From: Saccoglossus kowalevskii
Lineage: Eukaryota > Hemichordata > Enteropneusta > Harrimaniidae
Reading direction: 5' to 3'
Length of the DNA: 64,000 bases
Assembly: GCF_000003605.2 (NCBI RefSeq)
Contig: NW_003139318.1
Coordinates: 250,996 to 314,995 of the forward strand
The notes below the pieces were generated by a model. The model ran no database searches, was not told where the DNA came from, and saw nothing but the letters and a program-made list of their open reading frames with translations. Position 1 is the stretch's first letter; each line of letters opens with the position of its first letter. A program made the position numbers and the translations under genes. Positions 1,240-46,900 of the stretch are shown here, piece after piece.

Positions 1240-2313
1240 TAGTGACGGGTGATTATGGAGTATTCCTTGTGCAGAGCATTTAAACTGGCCAATGAAAATA
1301 AAGCGACCATATTTTATTTCAATTACAAAATTACAAAATCTTATAGGGTGTGATGTTCACATAAATCTGAATGGGTAATGTGATATTACTAGCATGACAG
1401 CTAGGCATTAGTGCAATGTTGTAAAGTGACTGGATTATGGGGGATTCTCTGTGCTAAGCATTCAAATTGGCCAATAAACATATTTGAGTATCTTATTTCC
1501 AGAGACCAATTATGAATTCGCATAGTGTGCAACATTTGCATAAATCTGAATGGGTAATGAGATATTACTAGCATCACAGCTAGGCATTAGTGGAATGTTG
1601 TAAAGTGACTGGACTATGGGAGATTTCCTGTGCTAAGCATTAAAATTGGCCAATAAATATATTTGAGTATCTTATTTCCAGAGACCAATTATGAATTTGC
1701 ATAGTGTGCGACATTTGCATAAATCTGAATGGGTAATGAGATATTACTAGCATCACAGCTAGGCATTAGTGGATTGTTGTAAAGTGACTGTATTATGAGG
1801 GATTTCCTGTGCTAAGCATTCAAATTGGCCAATAAACATATTTGAATATCTTATTTCCAGAGACTAATTATGAATTCGCATAGTGTGCGACATTTGCATA
1901 AATCTGAATGGGTAATGAGATATTACTAGCATCACATCTAGGCATTAGTGGAATGTTGTAAAGTGACTGACTTATGGGGGATTCTCTGTGCTAAGCATTC
2001 AAATTGGCCAATAAACACATTTGAGTATCTTATTTCCAGAGACCAATTATGAATTCGCATAGTGTGCAACATTTGCATAAATCTGAATGGGTAATGAGAT
2101 ATTACTAGCATCACAGCTAGGCATTAGTGGAATGTTGTAAAGTGACTGCATTATGGGGGATTCCCTGTGCTAAGCATTCAAATTGGCCAATAAACATATT
2201 TGAGTATCTTATTTCCAGAGACCAATTATGAATTCGCATAGTGTGCGACATTTGCATAAATCTGAATGGGTAATGAGATATTACTAGCATCACAGCTAGG
2301 CATTAGTGGAATG
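1240..2313. repeat. 179-bp satellite array, six units
   Basis: GGGTAATGWGATATTACTAG starts at 1373, 1552, 1731, 1910, 2089 and 2268, so every spacing is exactly 179 bp. The first, partial unit (from about 1240) is the most diverged, and the array breaks off after GCATTAGTGGAATG near 2313. Later units differ by only a few bases. Most contain an exact POU octamer, ATTTGCAT, just before AAATCTGAATGGG. The period is close to a nucleosome repeat, as in many animal satellites. No indels occur between units, which suggests recent unequal crossover or gene conversion. Confidence 0.95.
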
Positions 2314-5214: not shown

Positions 5215-6130
5215 CTTCCTCTCATTTCCTTCAACACAACCCCCTAAGTTACATTTTATTGCACAGAACCAGGCATCTAATGTACAATGCACTTCACCAC
5301 AACCCCCTAAGTTACCTATCATTACACACTACCAGGTATCTAATGTATATTGTACTTTAACACAACCCCCTAAGTTTCCTATCATTACACACTACCAGGT
5401 ATCTAATGTATATTGTACTTTAACACAACCCCCTAAGTTACCTATCATTACACACTACCAGGTATCTAATGTATATTTACTTCAACACAACCCCCTAAGT
5501 TTCCTATCATTACACACTACCAGGTATCTAATGTATATTGTACTTTAACATAACCCCCTAAGTTTCCTATCATTACACACTACCAGTATCTAATGTATAT
5601 TGTACTTTAACACAAACCCCTAAGTTTCCTATCATTACACACTACCAGGTATCTAATGTATATTGTACTTTAACACAACCCCCTAAGTTTCCTATCATAA
5701 CACACTACCAGTATCTAATGTATATTTACTTCAACACAACCCCCTAAGTTACCTATCATTACACACTACCAGTATCTAATGTATATTGTACTTTAACACA
5801 ACCCCCTAAGTTACCTATCATTACACACTTCCAGGTATCTAATGTATATTTACTTCAACACAACCCCCTAAGTTTCCTATCATTACACACTACCAGTATC
5901 TAATGTATATTGTACTTTAACACAACCCCCTAAGTTTCCTGTCATTACACACTACCAGTATCTAATGTATATTTACTTCAACACAAACCCTTAAATTACC
6001 TATCATTACACACTACCAGTATCTAATGTATATTGCATTTCAACACAACCCCCTAAGTTACCTATCATTACACACTTCCAGGTATGTAATGTATATTGTA
6101 CTTTAACACAACCCCCCTAAGATACCTATT
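5215..6130. repeat. ~62-bp minisatellite, 15 units
   Basis: The core CCCCCTAAGTT recurs at about 5240, 5303, 5366, 5429, 5491, 5554 and so on to 6109, with 61-63 bp spacing. Each unit holds AACACAACCCCCTAAGT, CCTATCATTACACACTACCA and GGTATCTAATGTATATT. Length variation comes from two sites: presence or absence of GG in CCAGGTATC, and TGTACTTTAA versus TTACTTCAA. Two unit types are therefore interspersed. Every unit has a cytosine-rich strand core, against an AT-rich background. Confidence 0.95.
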
Positions 6131-6184
6131 ATTGCACACAGATACAAGTAATCCAATACCTGAATTGGATCACTAAACTATGCA

Positions 6185-9373: not shown

Positions 9374-10083
9374 TAATACTGTTTTCTCGATCAAGCATTA
9401 GAATATAGTTGCTACTTCATGCAGTGGTCTTTGCACTGTTTTTTGTTCAATAAAAATTGTTGTTGACTCGCCGAATGATATAAAACATGAGCTGCTATTT
9501 CTTGCAATATATTTAATCAAAAATACACATAATAATTATCAAAATACAGTTTCTGACTGAATATTTACTAAAGGTTGACAAGCAGGATATTGTTGCCAGT
9601 GTTTGGAGAAAAGCTGCTGTGACACTTGGCCAGAATAAAGATCGAATGACTGAGGGAAAATGAATCAGTTTAAAAATACAGCATATCACATGAATCAGTA
9701 AGGAGACAATAGTTAGGCCAGGTAAAAAAAATTCTCTGTTTCTCGTTTCATGGAAATTTTAAAATGAGGCGGCGGGGCATTTTTTTTTTTAAATAGTGAG
9801 CTTAAATAGGGGAAACTTGAGACAAGTGCAAGTACAAGCGCATTTTGGAATGCTTTAGAAGGAAAAAAACGTCTGAGGCACATATAAGAGAAACAGAGAT
9901 ATTTTTTTTCTCAGCCTTAGGACAAATTTACACATTGACCCTTGATCCATTTCCCTTTCTTTTTTATGAAATTCAATAAAAGCGATGATAGTCATGTTGC
10001 ATAATTATCAAGCATTTAGGAGAATTACAAGCAACCAATGACATCATCCTATTTAATACATTGATCTCACCTGATCAAAGTCA
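9374..10083. other. unannotated AT-rich stretch
   Basis: No gene recognised. The phrase GAGAAACAGAGATATTTTTTT near 9890 recurs near 43655, which may mark another old interspersed repeat too short to define. Confidence 0.5.
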
Positions 10084-10262: not shown

Positions 10263-10784
10263 ATATATTTTGCTGAGTTAGCCCTGCCTTGGGTCGACCC
10301 CTAAATCAATATACAAATCGCGTTTGTTAGGATCCTGCTATAATTTCAAGACTTCCTCATACTGTTTAATACTGCTAATAACACTCCACAAAAGTTCAGT
10401 AGTGTCCTATATAATTTACTTTGCAATATATCATACTATTAAAGGCAGCCATAGTAAGCTTTCAGCCTGACGTCTAAGCAATATCTAGTATTAAAAGTCA
10501 CTGAAAGTCTATTAGGAACAGCAGCCTCTGTAGAGTCGTATAAATTATTGACTCCTCTAGACACACCAAGATTATAGCAGTCTCTTAACTCGGATACTAA
10601 AAATCTTTATCAAACTTCCCTTACAAGCCTAGATACAGGATAATAAACCTAGTTAGGCCTGCACAATAAATAAATGTGCCATGCATTTTTTAACGGCAGT
10701 TATATTTACTGAATAGCAGGCATGAATTAATTTTAATATTTTATGTTATGTAGTTTAACCCATGAGTAGAATAAAGTTTAAACG

Positions 10785-10788
<4 letters not shown>

Positions 10789-10844
<56 letters not shown>
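10789..10844. repeat. (TA)n microsatellite, ~28 units
   Basis: Uninterrupted alternating TA. It directly abuts the 3' end, on the minus strand, of the ribozyme-bearing retroelement fragment at 10845-10985. In that reading it is the element's simple-repeat tail or its preferred target. Confidence 0.95.
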
Positions 10845-10845
<1 letters not shown>

Positions 10846-10985
10846 GTGGACAGAGAAATTAAGACACGACTACATGAGTAAAGTTCACTCTACAGTACTG
10901 TTTCGTAAGGTACATGGAGTACCTCACTCATCAGGAGTTAAGACTTTATTAAATAAACCACCGAAACAGACTACGTTATAAGCGC
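10845..10985 (-). mobile_element. 3' end of a Penelope-like element or retrozyme (inferred)
   Basis: The segment between the (TA)n tract and about 10985 holds a complete hammerhead ribozyme on the minus strand, followed by a CTTAATTTCTCTGTCCACG tail running into (TA)n. Type I hammerheads with very short stem III are known from Penelope-like retroelements and animal retrozymes, where they lie in terminal repeats. No reverse transcriptase or GIY-YIG endonuclease frame is visible upstream, so the copy appears 5'-truncated or is a non-coding derivative. The left boundary is clear at the TA tract; the right one is a guess. Confidence 0.65.
10879..10948 (-). ncRNA. type I hammerhead self-cleaving ribozyme
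   Basis: Read on the minus strand, all parts are present in order. Stem I 5' side: TAAAGT, internal loop CTTA, ACTC. Core: CTGATGA (plus 10928-10934). Stem II: GTGAGGTAC / GTACCTTAC, nine pairs including one G-T, loop TCCAT (10905-10927). Core: GAAA (10901-10904). Stem III: CAG / CTG with a two-base TA loop plus the A-U pair. Then the GUA cleavage triplet (10891-10893), and stem I 3' side: GAGT, GA, ACTTTA. Cleavage would fall between plus positions 10891 and 10890. No conserved core base is missing. The tiny stem III and its palindrome CAGTACTG suggest activity as a dimer, as proposed for Penelope-element hammerheads. Confidence 0.9.
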
Positions 10986-11370
10986 TACAGATTTGCATAA
11001 CAATGGAGTGTGTTTACGATATTAAAACTAGTTGTTGCATAGCAACGATTTGGCTCTGTGAAAGAAAAAAGCTCATTTCTTTTATTTAAACTACAGTAAT
11101 GTGGTTGGAAAATTATAATATATTTCTCTCTAATACATAAGTTGCAACATTTGCTTGAAGTATTGTATGGTGCAGCACGCGATAACACTCCATTTGATGT
11201 CGTAATCGATGTTATTGTCTTTTAATGACCAAGCGTATTTACTGAGCTCTGTTGCGTTTCTCAATGATTGGTTGCGTAGCAATGCAGTGTGGTTTCTGTA
11301 TATATATATATAGCTTTTTTTGTGATATACTGGTAAACATACCCTCAGTCTTATTATCTGGTAAACTTGT
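10986..11370. other. unannotated stretch
   Basis: Contains two 13-bp imperfect X-box-like palindromes (GTTGCATAGCAAC at 11034, GTTGCGTAGCAAT near 11270) and a short (TA)n near 11296. The minus frames at 10985-11396 show no reverse transcriptase, endonuclease or other recognisable motif. Confidence 0.5.
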
Positions 11371-15338: not shown

Positions 15339-16350
15339 GTCCCCGTTCCGTTCATATTTGAGTGACATATACATTCAAAGCAGATCATGACCGAAATGCA
15401 CCTGCATATGTACAACACATTGTGCTAAATCTGAACAAAATCCATCCATGCATGACTGAGATCCGGTTCTGCAATTGTGAAAATATGTGATTTTGATGCA
15501 TTTTCGGCCTTAAAATGGCCATCATTCCGCTATTGTTAAGCAGATCATGAAACAAATGCACATATCTATTTGTGACATGATGTACCATGTGTGTGTGAAG
15601 TTTGAACTTGATCAATCCAGACATGTCTTGGATACGGATCCAGAACTGAATTCTTTAAAACAAAATGGCCGCCAGTCGGCTATTTCGAACTTGATCCGAA
15701 AAAAAAATGACGTGCATCAAGGTCCTATTATGTTTAATGTATGTACCAAATTTGAATGAAATCCGTCCATGCATAACTGAGATCCGGGTCCGGAATGGTG
15801 AAAATGTGCGATTTCAATGCATTTTCGGCCTTAAAGCGGCCGCCATTTGGCTATCGTTAATGAGATCATGAAACAAATGCACATACATATTTGTGACATG
15901 ATGTACCTTGTGTGTGTGAAGTTTGAACTCGATCAATCCAAGTATGTCTCAGATACGGATCCAGAACTGAATTCTTTAAAACAAAATGGCCGCCAGTCGG
16001 CCATTTCGAACCCGATCCAAAAAAAAAAATGACGTGCATCAAGGTCCTATTATGTTTAATGTATGTACCAAATTTGAACAAAATCCGACTATGCATAACT
16101 GAGATCCGGGTCCGGAATGGTGAAAATGCCTTAAAATGGCCGCTATTCGGCTATCGTTAATCGGATCATGAAAAAAATGCATGTGCATATGTCCCATATA
16201 ATGTGTGATGTATGAGTGAAGTTTGAACTTAATCGGTCCATGCATGTTCGAGATACAGGTGATCACGGACGCACGGACGCACGGACGCACGGACGCACGG
16301 ACGCACACAAAACATAAGTCCCCGTTTTCGGACTGCGTCCGAACGGGGAC
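15339..16350 (+). mobile_element. family F element, ~1 kb, internally repetitive
   Basis: Left end GTCCCCGTTCCG and right end CCGAACGGGGAC are inverted with one mismatch. Inside, GATCATGAMMRAAATGCAC starts at 15383, 15543, 15864 and 16164. A ~320-bp composite unit is made of two related ~160-bp halves, each ending in an AAATGGCCGCC-like phrase. The third composite unit lacks about 21 bp. The right end holds an 8-bp tandem array and a strong hairpin. Frames across it repeat with the unit and are not a gene. Class is uncertain: a subterminal hairpin could suggest a Helitron-like end, but the inverted termini argue for a DNA-transposon derivative. Confidence 0.8.
16265..16307. repeat. (CGGACGCA)n, five units
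   Basis: Perfect 8-bp tandem CGGACGCA inside the right end of the F element. It is CpG-rich in an otherwise CpG-poor region. Similar short GACGCACG-type runs near hairpin ends are a known style of invertebrate non-autonomous elements. Confidence 0.93.
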
Positions 16351-21534: not shown

Positions 21535-22140
21535 TATTATGTGTTTCACTGCTAAAAATTGTCCATCGAAAATATATGAACGCAACATTTTCCAATTTTG
21601 TCTATTTCCTGGATTTTTTTTATACAAAAATTTCAAATCTGAACTGTTCACATTTTTTACCAAAAATAGCTAAAAACACCAAAAACGTTTTGCATTAGTA
21701 CACTCTATTAAGATAAAAATGTTGGTGATACGAGTCAATTTTCATCACTTTTCAGGTTAGAAATTTCCGCAGGAAACTGTTTAAATCAACATACAAAATC
21801 ATTTGTTACAAACTCGTCAGATTTAAATTCTGATCGGTATACTTAACGATGACGATAAATTCAAAGCACGGTACATTAAACACAAAACTCGTTCAAATCT
21901 TTGTGACAGACTGTAAAGTGACTGAGTAGACAAAAGAAAATTGCTACTCTGTGACAATTACGGAAATACATTGTAGTAAGGACAATCCATCAGACAGAAT
22001 TGTATTGTCTTGATTGACAGTGATTTGTAAATCATCGAAAAATGACTCATCGAAAAAGAGTTATGCTCAATAATCCATAACAGCAGAACAAATGATAGAT
22101 TGGATCTGGGACTGTTATTCTCAAAGAAAATTAAACACAA
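21535..22140. other. unannotated AT-rich stretch
   Basis: No gene or repeat recognised between A2 and the 192-bp array. Confidence 0.5.
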
Positions 22141-22711
22141 AGCATAGTGTGCATGTCAGATGGTATTATCAAAGCTGCATGTCAGTTTCAGAGGGACTCA
22201 AACTCTGTAAATTTTACGGCTTGTCAAAAAATGTATATAAATCTGATCCATATTAGGAAGATATTACACTTGAAGGAAATACAAGATGGAATAAATCAAA
22301 TCTACTATCAATACATGACGAAAATATGTCAAAGCATAGTGTGCATGTTAGATGGTATTATCAAAGCTGCATGTTGGTTTCAGAGAGATTCAAATTCTGT
22401 CAATTTTACGGCTTGTCAAAAAATGTATATAAATCTGATCCATATTAGGAAGATATTACACTTGAAGGAAATACAAGATGGAATAAATCAAATCTACTAT
22501 CAATACATGACGAAAATATGTCAAAGCATAGTGTGCATGTCAGATGGTATTATCAAAGCTGCATGTTGGTTTCAGAGAGATTCAAATTCTGTCAATTTTA
22601 CAGCTTGAACCATTTACATTGATATTAGGAAGATATTACACTTGAAAAAATTAAAGAAATACACAATGGAATAAATCAAATCTACTATCAATACATGATG
22701 AAAATATGTCA
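22141..22711. repeat. 192-bp tandem array, ~3 units, open in one frame
   Basis: AGCATAGTGTGCATGT starts at 22141, 22333 and 22525, giving a period of 192 bp, or 64 codons. Units 1 and 2 are almost identical. Unit 3 has a mutated AGCTTGAACC, a deletion and an AAAAAATTAAAG insertion. Because the period is divisible by three, one plus frame stays open for 153 codons (22147-22608), repeating a 64-residue segment with DGIIKAAC and FQRDSNSVNFTACQ. A stop lies just upstream at 22132 and no start context or domain supports a gene. I treat the frame as a by-product of the repeat. Confidence 0.92.
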
Positions 22712-22715
22712 AACT

Positions 22716-23280
22716 GATGTAGGTGTAGTCTGCAGTTTTTGTGTAGTCTGCAAAATGTTAGTATAGTCGGCAAATTTTTGTGTAGTTTGCAAAATGTTGT
22801 GGACATCATAGTGTTGGTTCAGTCTGCAAGATGTTGGTGGTCTTCTAAATGTTTGTGTAGTCAACACAATGTTGACATAGACTGCAAAATGTTGGTGTAG
22901 TCTGCAAACTATTAGTATAGTCTGCAAAATGTTCTGTAGTTTGCAAAATGTTGTGTGAATATCATAATGTTGGCATAGACTGCAAAATGTTGGTGTAGAC
23001 TTCAAAATGTTTATGTAGTCTGCAAACTATTAGTATAGTTTGCATAATGTTTTGTAGTCTGCAAGATGTTGGTGGTCTTCTAAATGTTTGTGTAGTCAAC
23101 ACAATGTTGGTGTAGACTTCAAAATGATTGTGTAGTCTGCAAACTATTTAATTAAGTCTACACAATATTGTAGTAGTGTGCAAAATATTGGTATCGTCTA
23201 CAAAGTATGGTGTAGTCTGCAAAATGTTTTTGTAGTCGTCAAAATGTTAGCGTAGTCTACAAACTGTCTACTGTCTGCTT
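22716..23280. repeat. degenerate ~22-bp array (TGTAGTCTGCAAAATGTTGG)
   Basis: Roughly 25 imperfect units related to GTGTAGTCTGCAAAATGTTG run from the end of the 192-bp array. Higher-order blocks such as GTCTGCAAGATGTTGGTGGTCTTCTAAATGTTTG recur twice, so larger segments were also duplicated. The 98-codon minus frame rich in Cys, Thr and Gln is a reading of this repeat and not a gene. Confidence 0.9.
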
Positions 23281-25558: not shown

Positions 25559-26186
25559 TGTCGTTGTCAACTTTGCCTGTGTCAACTTTTTATCTTTTCG
25601 ATTTCTTCTTAAAAACTACAAGCCTGATTGCTTTGATACTTGGTATATATGTACCTTGGGTACACCTCAATTTGATTTGTTCATTTCATGATGATATCTT
25701 CAATTCTCTAATTTAGATTAATATTTTTGTCATTTTTTGTAAAAAGAGATATTTGTTAAAAAACACAAGCAGATTGCTTTGATATTATACATTATGGTAC
25801 TTTGGGTACACCTCAATTTGATTTGTTCATTTCATGATGATATCTTCAATTCTCTAATTTAGATTAATATTTTTGTCATTTTTTGTAAAAAGAGATATTT
25901 GTTAAAAAACACAAGCAGATTGCTTTGATATTATACATAAAGGTACTACAGGTAGACCTCTTCAGATTTGTGATGATATCTTCAATTCTCTAATTTAGAT
26001 TAATATTTTTGTCATTTTTTGTAAAAAGAGATATTTGTTAAAAAACACAAGCAGATTGCTTTGATATTATACATAAAGGTACTACAGGTAGACCTCTCTC
26101 AGATTTGTTCATTTTATGATGATATCTTACTCTATATGTGCATTGCTAACAGCAGGGCTATCTCAGCCGAGAGGCTGCTTGTTCCT
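25559..26186 (+). repeat. family E interspersed repeat with internal 146-bp array
   Basis: A unique 5' part (GTCAACTTTTTATCTTTTCG, CTTCTTAAAAACTACAAGCCTGATTGC) leads into ~3.5 units marked by GATGATATCTTCAATTC at 25690, 25836, 25972 and a variant at 26118. Spacing is 146, 136 and 146 bp. The third unit lacks about 10 bp (TTCATTTCA). It ends in TGTGCATTGCTAACAG and GGCTATCTCAGCCGAGAGGCTGC. A minus-strand relative lies at 50263-50601. The 90-codon frame across the start is shared with that copy only because the DNA is repeated. The class is unknown. Confidence 0.85.
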
Positions 26187-39405: not shown

Positions 39406-40189
39406 ATGAAGCCTCCACCCTTTCGTCTAGAACTCCTACTGTCTGCAAGCTATATTTGGGGAAATTATCTCCCATACTTTCTGCATGATATGATTCTGTA
39501 TTTTTGTAAAAAGCTAATTCTGTCAAATTGGAAGAGTTTAACTCCCTGAGGACAGTCAACATTCTTAATTTGGACTTCAAACATCAAACAAATATTGTGT
39601 CTGGAGGTTTAGGTCTAATCAGTGATAAAAATGAAATAATGTTCTTCCTCCGAGCTAATTTGAGAGTGCCTCTAACTGGATTACAGATCGTATCACGACA
39701 TGTAACTTTGTTACAAAGAAATTACTTCCAGTCAAGCATTAACCCCCTTGTAGTCAGAATGATTTCTGTTGTAGACTTGATGTACGCTTTCCCTTATTCT
39801 CAATATTATTTCATAAATTTAACTTTTTTTTTTGGACTAAAATTAAAAAAAAAAAATAATTTAAAGGGTCCAGTGTATTTCAGAATACGGATTGAATCAA
39901 GTTTGTATAAATAGAAAAGATTGGAGGTGGATGTGAATAGCACTGAAAGCATGAAATACTAAGTGAGTCCGATGGGGGATTTGGGAAAGGAGGTCGAGAG
40001 GGTATTAGCTTGGCTATAATGATAAGGATATGCCGGCAGTACCTCCAAATCTCTACTTGTTTCAGACAGCAAAAATATTAGTTTTCAGACAGTTTTGCGC
40101 TAAATGTATGCATGTATATCCTTCTTAACCTATAGTTCATCTTCAACATATAAAAACATTTAAATACACCCTCCCTCCATTTAATTTAT
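39406..40189. other. unannotated; 128-codon open frame of no recognised family
   Basis: A plus frame at 39528-39914 is the longest outside repeats. It lacks a convincing start, has no domain I recognise, and ends in a T-run and A-run. Given the AT content, one frame of this length in 64 kb is expected by chance, so I do not call it a gene. Confidence 0.45.
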
Positions 40190-40900
40190 CAACCATCATT
40201 GGCTTTATCAATAATTTATTGATTGTATTAACCATTTACTATTATTATTTTTATTAATATTATTACTATTTTTACTATTTTTAACTTTATCAACCAGTAT
40301 ACCTTTATCAATAATTTATCAATTGTATTAACCATTTACTATTATTATTTTTAATAATATTATTACTTTTTAACTTTATCAACCAGTATACCTTTATCAA
40401 TAATTTATCAATTGTATTAACCATTTAGTTACTATTATTATTTTTAATAATATTATTACTATTTTTAACTTCATCAACCAGTATACCTTTATCAATAATT
40501 TATCAATTGTATTAACCATTTACTATTATTATTTTTATTAATATTATTACTATTTTTAACTTTATCAACCAGTATACCTTTATCAATAATTTATTGATTG
40601 TATTAACCATTTACTATTATTATTTTTAATAATATTATTACTATTTTTAACTTCATCAACCAGTATACCTTTATCAATAATTTATCAATTGTATTAACCA
40701 TTTACTATTATTATTTTTATTAATATTATTACTATTTTTTAACTTTATCAACCAGTATACCTTTATCAATAATTTATTGATTGTATTAACCATTTACTAT
40801 TATTATTTTTAATAATATTATTACTATTTTTAACTTTATCAACCAGTATACCTTTATCAATAATTTATTAATTTTATTTACTATTTAATAATATTTTTAT
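40190..40900. repeat. ~91-bp AT-rich minisatellite, eight units
   Basis: CCAGTATACC recurs at 40294, 40383, 40478, 40569, 40660, 40752 and 40843 (89-95 bp apart). Each unit contains CTTTATCAATAATTTATYRATTGTATTAACCATTTA and a variable ATT/AAT tract. Two sites alternate between units: TTATTGATTG versus TATCAATTG, and CTTTATC versus CTTCATC. This shows a higher-order pattern. Decayed units continue to about 41040. Confidence 0.95.
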
Positions 40901-41762
40901 TTTTAACTAATTATCATCAACTTTATTCATTTACTACTTATTACATCATCAATTATATCAATATATTAAATATCAACCAGTTGTAAATTTTATCAACCAT
41001 TTATTAACTAGTCACAAAATATTATTAACCAGTAACAATATAAGTGTGCCAAACATGTATCAATATTATAAATCATCTATGAACTTTTTACTTGAATAAA
41101 AAAACAAAATCTTGTATTTAAAAACACACAATCATGTTTGTTTTTCCTGCAACTCATCTCAAATAAGTACAAAATGTACACAACTAGACAAACTGCTGGT
41201 TTCCGGGGAATTGAGCTCTTGAAAATGTCAAAAAGAATCACTGATTCTTTTTTTTAAATAAAGCATGGAAAACATGACATTTTGGACTGACAACAAAAAT
41301 TGAGTATTACAAATTCACAATTAAGATCTAGTGTCCAAACTTTGATAAATGAACTTTTAATAGCAATTTTGCCCCGAAACATTTTCAATATCAGTTTTGA
41401 TGTGACCCTAAATGTAGCAAGCTTTCATCACCGATTTCGTCAGACTTGCATAACTGACAACACAGCGATTGCTAGATGCATTGTTCTACCTTCGTCTTCC
41501 CACTGGGAATCGATGACTCAACAGAAATGAGTGATACTAAAAATAAAACCAAAGCACTCTAAAGAAACCACCCATTTACAAGCATGATGACAATAATGGT
41601 TTCTGACAGACGACACTTATGTTTTGCTTGAAAATGCAAAAAGAATTTTAAATATCGCTTCTAATCATTTTTTTTTTCAATTTGATTTCAAGCAGAAAAT
41701 GTTTGGGAAACATACAGAATGTTTGGTTTACAAAAAAAAAATACATTAAAATGCAACTACTA
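40901..41762. other. unannotated AT-rich stretch
   Basis: Decayed array edge, then no recognisable gene or transposon. Confidence 0.5.
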
Positions 41763-46129: not shown

Positions 46130-46900
46130 ACCGTAAGCTTGAAAAAGTATCTGAATATCTGTAAAGTTAGGGGAACTTGCACACCAGTATCTAATTTGCA
46201 TATTGAACTGAATCTAACTACATGTAGTAGAATTAGGGGGAGCATATACATGATGGATTCTGCATTGAGAATAAATATGAATATGAGAGGAGTTAGGGGG
46301 TTTAAATATAAGTATCAATTTCACTTTAAAGATAAATCTGAATATGAGTGGAGTTAGGGAGCTTGAATATAAATATCGATTACAATTTAAAGATAAAGCT
46401 GAATATGAGTGGAGTTAGGGGGCTTGAATATTAATATCAATTTTACTTTAAAAATAAATCTGAATATGAGTGGAGTTAGGGGGCTTGAATATAAATATCG
46501 ATTACAATTTAAAGATAAAGCTGAATATGAGTGGAGTTAGGGGGCTTAAATATTAATATTGATTTTACATTAAAGATAAATCTGAATATGAGTAGACTTA
46601 GAGGGCTTAAATGTGAGTATCAGTTTCACTTTAAAGCTAAATCTGAATATGAATGGAGTTAGGGAGCTTAAATATTAATATTGATTTCACATTAAAGATA
46701 AATCTGAATATGAGTAAACTTACGGGGCTTAAATGCAAGTATCAATTTCTCTTTAAAGCTAAATCCGAATATGAGTGGAGTTAGGAGCCTTAAAAACAAG
46801 TATCAATTTCACTTTAAAGCTAAATAAGTATGAGTGGAGTTAGGGAGCTTACATGTGAGCCTCCATTTTGTATTAATTTAAATGTGACTAAGAGTGGACT
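46130..46900. repeat. 61-bp minisatellite, about 12 units
   Basis: AGTTAGGG recurs at 46291, 46352, 46413, 46474, 46535 and onward, exactly 61 bp apart. Each unit contains AAATCTGAATATGAGTGGAGTTAGGG, a GGCTTRAATATAARTATC segment and TTTAAAGATAAA. Units at both ends are diverged. Adjacent units alternate between GATTACAATTTAAAGATAAAGC and ATTTTACTTTAAAAATAAATC types, suggesting a 122-bp dimer. Confidence 0.94.

What the first reader, a model, noticed from the sequence alone, without database searches (positions are those of the whole stretch)
10879..10948. Complete type I hammerhead ribozyme on the minus strand
Every conserved core base is present (CTGATGA, GAAA, a GUA cleavage triplet). Stem II has nine pairs. 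Stem I forms 4 bp, an internal loop of CTTA opposite GA, then 6 bp. Stem III is only CAG/CTG plus the A-U pair with a two-base loop, and its strand is the palindrome CAGTACTG. Known biology: short-stem-III type I hammerheads occur in Penelope-like elements and animal retrozymes and may work as dimers. This is the clearest functional RNA in the window. The extended stem I with an internal loop resembles the tertiary-contact arrangement of fast natural hammerheads.
Basis: partly seen in the sequence, partly recalled or inferred. Interest (0 to 1): 0.88.

Follow-up and report, generated by a model that had tools for sequence, protein, structure and literature searches.

The report
Hammerhead ribozyme in a Penelope-like retrotransposon
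The sequence carries a real self-cleaving-RNA motif of the hammerhead kind, and it is there because a broken copy of a known type of jumping gene (a Penelope-like element) landed in a run of TA repeats; such ribozymes are already known in this kind of element.

Summary
The hammerhead is there, on the minus strand at 10948-10879, with the cut predicted between 10891 and 10890. A structural descriptor finds it once in the window and never in 200 shuffles. It lies in a repeat: minus strand 11300-10836 is a 5'-truncated, frame-broken copy of a retroelement that I identify as a Penelope-like element (PLE), with (TA)n on both sides. The tight motif occurs 77 times in the 572-Mb genome, 0 times read backwards. 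Two subfamilies (endonuclease regions 44-67% identical over matched parts) keep it at the same place. One other copy shows it before the N-terminal coding region. Against: no Rfam hammerhead hit; core no better kept than flanks among young copies; Pfam, NCBIfam and PDB did not recognise the protein pieces. Worth following: the (TA)n association with two alternative 3' ends, and a second, telomere-adjacent hammerhead elsewhere in the genome.

The parts
10836..11300 (-). 5'-truncated, frame-broken copy of a Penelope-like element (3' end of the ORF, 3' UTR, hammerhead, terminal sequence)
   Evidence: Parts of it match in 37 of 37 fetched loci, with scattered 5' ends; in 31 of 37 the match reaches 10843 or beyond at the 3' side
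11063..11300 (-). Remnant of the C-terminal endonuclease-like region, split over two frames (11300-11178 and 11188-11063)
   Evidence: tblastn of P0001 and P0003, E 4.8e-22 and 2.7e-24; open reading in L013
10879..10948 (-). Type I hammerhead ribozyme motif, stem I to stem I
   Evidence: sequence; descriptor 1 hit, 0 of 200 shuffles; family model R1 114 bits, but the model was built with it
10928..10934 (-). Core CUGAUGA
   Evidence: Sequence
10905..10927 (-). Stem II, 9 pairs, loop TCCAT
10901..10904 (-). Core GAAA
10892..10901 (-). 10-nt palindrome ACAGUACUGU, stem III of a possible dimer
   Evidence: Sequence; paired between strands in the two-strand minimum-energy fold
10890..10891 (-). 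Predicted cut, after A10891 of GUA
   Evidence: Position follows from the motif; not tested
10788..10844 (.). (TA)n at the 3' side of the insertion
   Evidence: 38 of 53 3' ends of family pieces have a (TA) run of 8 or more bases within about 30 nt
11299..11312 (.). (TA)7 at the 5' side of the insertion (2 bases shared with the element)

Best explanation
This is the terminal (pseudo-LTR) hammerhead of a Penelope-like retrotransposon of the usual domain order (RT, then a C-terminal GIY-YIG-type endonuclease), here in a dead, 5'-truncated copy. Shown: the motif, its place just 3' of the endonuclease-like frame, a copy of it before the N-terminal coding region in one other locus, two subfamilies that both have it, (TA)n beside the insertions, and two alternative 3' ends. 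Inferred: the PLE name itself (recalled motifs plus architecture); that in an intact element the RNA carries the motif at both ends or in tandem units; that two motifs pair through ACAGUACUGU into a double hammerhead (perhaps helped by the element protein); and that they cut after GUA to release unit RNAs. The window copy has one motif and can at best cut with a partner.
For: Dispersed family with 5' truncation. The 3' part of an ORF with CNCR..CPLDGNCL..VYQA..ETYVGLTGNEFKTRYRNH, which I recognise as a PLE endonuclease from memory. RT-like FDVTMGSFDGAETCELVG..GLYRDDGL upstream in L035. Hammerhead, then tail, then MKEINLGYSTKNIP..RMRWKAYFFL in L042. 77 motif copies in the genome against 0 for the reversed control. 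A second subfamily (44-67% identical over matched parts among the 22 places taken) has the motif at the same place. Identities between subfamilies: 0.64-0.65 in the ORF (2 rows), 0.52-0.56 in the ORF end plus 3' UTR (5 rows), 0.74-0.77 in the 70-nt motif for 4 of 5 rows and 0.61 for L054. The two-strand fold of the type-1 motif is the double hammerhead. A (TA) run of 8 or more bases within about 30 nt of 16 of 40 5' ends and 38 of 53 3' ends, against 8 of 2970 window and 19 of 1421 flank stretches of 32 nt. Published PLEs show the same set: hammerhead in pLTRs, optional 3' tail, AT-rich targets, inverted pLTRs (PMC11167929, PMC3846280, PMC7761336; passages).
Against: No Rfam hammerhead match in the window or in L016 and L070. 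Pfam, NCBIfam and PDB found no RT or GIY-YIG in the pieces, and the genome-wide Pfam GIY-YIG search found 19 places, none of them these loci. Among young copies the core differs at 14 of 565 cells against 63 of 2251 in the rest of the motif, 114 of 2946 upstream and 39 of 1303 downstream (44 of 66 alignment rows counted), so copies show no clear protection of the core. Several copies carry core changes (L015, L020, L024, L032, L064). Covariation is thin: one pair with changes on both sides (494 of 500 shuffles reach that), further pair types reached by 499 of 500, while cells paired, cells changed on both sides and covariation score are reached by 0 of 500. The energy gain of the dimer is not beyond shuffles (52 of 300 as low; 31 of 300 for the second subfamily), and the second subfamily's lowest-energy dimer is not a double hammerhead. 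The monomer's lowest-energy fold pairs core CUG with CAG. 8 of 20 endonuclease-flanking stretches had no R1 match. Insertion 5' ends do not gather at the cut (1 of 40 within 3 nt). No single copy was seen with the motif at both ends.
Confidence: 0.9

Rival explanations
1. A non-autonomous metazoan retrozyme: a short tandem repeat whose hammerhead makes small circular RNAs, mobilised in trans.
For: Same ribozyme type; retrozymes and PLEs share genomes (PMC7229834, passages).
Against: The copy runs into an endonuclease-like frame, not into a second short unit; the fetched copies are 5'-truncated single or head-to-head pieces, and I saw no array of 150-450 bp units among them.
Confidence: 0.04
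2. A fossil only: the motif was inherited from an active ancestor, and none of the present copies is cut in cells.
For: Core decays like the flanks among copies; the window copy is frame-broken; in the anole PLE the ribozyme is described as protein-assisted, its mutants still insert in vitro, and no RNA-seq reads began or ended at the cut (PMC11167929, passages).
Against: Two diverged subfamilies have the motif at 0.74-0.77 identity in 4 of 5 rows while the ORF end plus 3' UTR falls to 0.52-0.56, which suggests selection at least between them; several copies are 99-100% identical over the query, hence young.
Confidence: 0.3
3. Chance motif without any ribozyme history.
For: No Rfam match.
Against: 0 of 200 shuffles; 77 genomic copies in two subfamilies, 0 for the reversed control.
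Confidence: 0.01

Closest known systems
Minimal type I hammerheads of Penelope-like elements (Cervera & de la Peña 2014; Lünse et al. 2017; seen as citations in PMC7761336 and, the first, PMC11167929; originals not held)
   Same: Type I core, very short stem III, place in the flanking repeats, dimer proposal
   Different: Here stem II is long (9 pairs), and one subfamily has an outer stem I with an internal loop; whether others have these I could not check
Poseidon PAc of Anolis carolinensis (PMC11167929, passages)
   Same: Hammerhead at the pLTR-ORF junction, optional tail from two RT start sites, AT-rich targets
   Different: There the ORF starts at stem II of the ribozyme; in L042 here the recognisable N-terminal coding region lies downstream of ribozyme and tail. 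Flanks here are (TA)n runs
Terminons, telomere-attached PLEs (PMC6431247 and PMC12477314, passages)
   Same: Hammerhead near the 3' terminus, beside a terminal sequence that resembles the target repeat
   Different: Repeat is (TA)n, not telomeric; an endonuclease-like domain is present
Metazoan retrozymes (PMC7229834, passages)
   Same: Type I hammerhead
   Different: Not a short non-coding tandem repeat

Membership tests
Type I hammerhead ribozyme | CUGAUGA, GAAA, NUH triplet and three helices, open at stem I | tested here: met
   stem III has only 3 possible hairpin pairs in a monomer
Type I hammerhead ribozyme | Match to an Rfam hammerhead model | tested here: not met
   also none in L016 and L070. 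I do not regard this as defining (recalled view)
Type I hammerhead ribozyme | Self-cleavage at the predicted bond | not testable with these tools
   Needs a bench assay
Penelope-like element | PLE reverse transcriptase | tested here: inconclusive
   Motifs in L035 and L055 fit what I recall of PLE RT; Pfam and NCBIfam silent
Penelope-like element | C-terminal GIY-YIG endonuclease | tested here: inconclusive
   Conserved VYQ..YVGLTGNEFKTRYRNH-type region and Cys motif; Pfam GIY-YIG does not reach it, PDB profile search neither
Penelope-like element | Hammerhead in flanking repeats at both ends | tested here: met
   3' side in many copies; 5' side in one copy, L042; no single copy was seen with both
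Penelope-like element | 5' truncation, optional 3' tail, head-to-head copies | tested here: met
Metazoan retrozyme | Short (150-450 bp) non-coding tandem units | tested here: not met

The most novel reading that the evidence does not exclude
A PLE lineage specialised on (TA)n microsatellites, in which the terminal hammerhead and the nearby CGUAU(G)UA end work like the Terminon 3' end: the ribozyme fold presents a short sequence that pairs with the nicked (TA)n, with a second start site about 70 bases downstream used without such pairing. The two 3' ends, seen in both subfamilies, would be the traces.
Probability: 0.25. Interest if true: 0.55.

Novelty: new member of a known kind. Interest (0 to 1): 0.35.

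Why it matters
What the hammerheads of PLEs do is still open in print (PMC7761336 of 2020 calls it a mystery; passage). This family offers young copies, two subfamilies, defined ends at a simple repeat and a ribozyme that Rfam does not see, so the dimer and template questions can be tested in it. By itself it is one more example.

Tried and rejected
Retrozyme array and chance were considered and set aside. Core conservation among young copies was tested and gave nothing. I tested whether insertions begin at the ribozyme cut, as they would if cut RNA were the template: 1 of 40 ends lies within 3 nt (the 40 values were copied by hand), and an exact junction scan gave 10 rows at 2 places, neither at the cut. 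9 of the 40 ends lie within 20 nt just upstream of the motif (16 of 20,000 uniform draws reach that), but ends come from local alignments, two of the nine belong to inverted pairs and short copies are under-sampled, so this is a lead only. Rfam Hammerhead_1 in the whole genome gave no match and rang in none of the 14 control genomes, so it says nothing. Protein profile searches led nowhere. A phage-collection search gave no match. The organism was not identified. Papers: passages only of PMC11167929, PMC7229834, PMC7761336, PMC3846280, PMC12477314 and PMC6431247; others from search listings; (RDDG with Penelope) listed none. Cervera 2014 and Lünse 2017 are known to me from citations and recall. 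No structure prediction was run.

Full report
Observation. My descriptor of core plus three helices finds this site alone in the window and nothing in 200 dinucleotide shuffles. Rfam finds no hammerhead, at gathering scores over the window or at E up to 10 over 10780-11080; the 14 matches there are microRNA and other models that overlap the TA run. A loop of two bases in stem III is not possible in a hairpin, so the monomer has a very weak stem III.

What it lies in. A search of the window's own genome (572 Mb, 4830 contigs) with 201 bases gave 42 matches from 40 scored candidates of 136, so counts are lower bounds. I fetched 37 stretches, covering 41 of the 42 rows, that is all but the window itself. 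All 37 match minus strand 11300-10836 in part; 5' ends are scattered, and in 31 of 37 the match reaches 10843 or beyond, the other six stopping at 10866 to 10935. Longer copies extend upstream into an ORF. L013 reads openly from the LVDKCF..GNKLRKIF region through CNCRKKSECPLDGNCLQSALVYQ and ETYVGLTGNEFKTRYRNH to a stop about 95 bases before the ribozyme core. L035 has FDVTMGSFDGAETCELVG..GLYRDDGL and NFLDVTFNL further upstream, in two frames. From memory these are signatures of Penelope-like elements. No profile library confirmed it: Pfam, NCBIfam and PDB were silent on the pieces, and the 19 genome hits of Pfam GIY-YIG are elsewhere. The filing therefore rests on recalled motifs plus architecture. 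The window copy keeps only the C-terminal end, in two frames.

Second subfamily. The endonuclease query P0001 gave 122 matches. I took two longer loci from its less similar matches and the sequence 3' of 20 others; these 22 are 44-67% identical to the query over the matched parts. The family model R1 finds the motif in 12 of the 20 and in both longer loci; 8 of the 20 have none. The model had been built from 34 of 50 motif sequences, themselves picked by a fuzzy core pattern, and 10 of these 14 are among the 34, so only L054, L067, L071 and L072 are independent. Of the 12 such motifs printed, all have ACAGUGCUGU in place of ACAGUACUGU, 11 have GUC and L071 has GUU in place of GUA, and loop II is shorter. 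Between subfamilies (L013 against five rows) identity is 0.64-0.65 in the ORF (2 rows cover it), 0.52-0.56 in a 153-nt stretch made of the ORF end and 3' UTR, 0.74-0.77 in the 70-nt motif for 4 of 5 rows (0.61 in L054, whose stem II is shortened), and 0.60-0.74 after it. So the motif stands out over what precedes it, less over what follows. Genome-wide the tight pattern gives 77 places against 0 for the reversed control; that pattern fixes the core, so it counts copies and does not measure conservation. Among young copies the core is not clearly protected: 14 of 565 cells differ, against 63 of 2251 in the rest of the motif, 114 of 2946 upstream and 39 of 1303 downstream; 44 of 66 alignment rows were counted, the rest being short or under 80% identical. 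Covariation is limited: 93.7% of cells paired and one pair with changes on both sides; slid controls pair 24-44%. Three of five measures (cells paired, cells changed on both sides, covariation score) exceed all 500 shuffles, and the two that count pairs or types do not; with two lineages this is weak.

Ends and target. Type A copies end at CACGTAT(G) followed by (TA)n; type B copies run about 70 bases further, to ACTACCTTCC, then (TA)n. Of 11 type-B copies listed, 8 show that end or a close variant, L023 ends a little earlier, L041 differs, and L042 runs on into coding sequence. The second subfamily shows both kinds of end in the rows aligned (L054 and L075 short; L070 and L066 long). A (TA) run of 8 or more bases lies within about 30 nt of 16 of 40 resolvable 5' ends and 38 of 53 3' ends, against 8 of 2970 window stretches and 19 of 1421 flank stretches. 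The rows are alignment pieces, some of them two per locus; ends beside N or contig ends were dropped. L042 shows (TA)n, the motif, the tail and the N-terminal coding region in that order, then a gap of N, so the motif also stands at the 5' end; this is one copy, and none was seen with both ends. The published anole PLE has two RT start sites, an optional tail, AT-rich targets and a protein-assisted hammerhead, and its ribozyme mutants still insert in vitro (PMC11167929; passages).

Mechanism. Most likely two motifs of one tandem or full-length RNA, or of two RNAs, pair through the palindrome. The two-strand fold of the window motif is the double hammerhead, -51.0 against 2 x -20.4 kcal/mol; but 52 of 300 shuffles gain as much, and the second subfamily's best dimer is another structure, so energy alone does not argue for it. 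Cutting after GUA would release unit-length RNA. Whether that RNA is the template is doubtful: 1 of 40 insertion ends lies within 3 nt of the cut, and the exact junction scan found 2 places, neither at it.

Verdict. A real hammerhead motif in a Penelope-like retrotransposon copy: a new member of a known kind, activity untested. The (TA)n association and the paired 3' ends are the parts worth following. I did not see that combination in the listings and passages looked at, but the library lacks the two key papers, so no claim of novelty is made for it.

Noticed in passing
L046:1104-1175 (+); L078, core near 2759 (+): A second, GC-rich minimal hammerhead (Rfam HH9 32.4 bits, below its cut-off of 52; in L046 stem III ACCGGU and GUC) on a contig that starts with 41 CCCTAA repeats and has short CCCTAA runs inside. 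The 89% copy in L078 begins right after CCCTAA repeats that follow a long run of N; the blocks occur in swapped order, as in a chain of telomere-attached units (Terminon-like?). 2 places of the motif block, 3 of the other block.
   Followed up: partly
L031, L049, L050: Head-to-head pairs of terminal regions, in L049 and L050 joined near the ribozyme, as described for other PLEs.
   Followed up: partly
window 1360-2313, 5224-6139, 15427-16128, 22138-23267, 25659-26128, 40180-40906, 46271-46851: Many tandem arrays with units of about 20 to 320 bases.
   Followed up: no
window 9716-9871: 85% match to L011:1776-1936, another dispersed repeat about 1 kb from the element.
   Followed up: no
window 18394, 35332, 48441, 51761: Four other CTGATGA...GAAA matches that do not meet the helix descriptor; probably chance.
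   Followed up: yes
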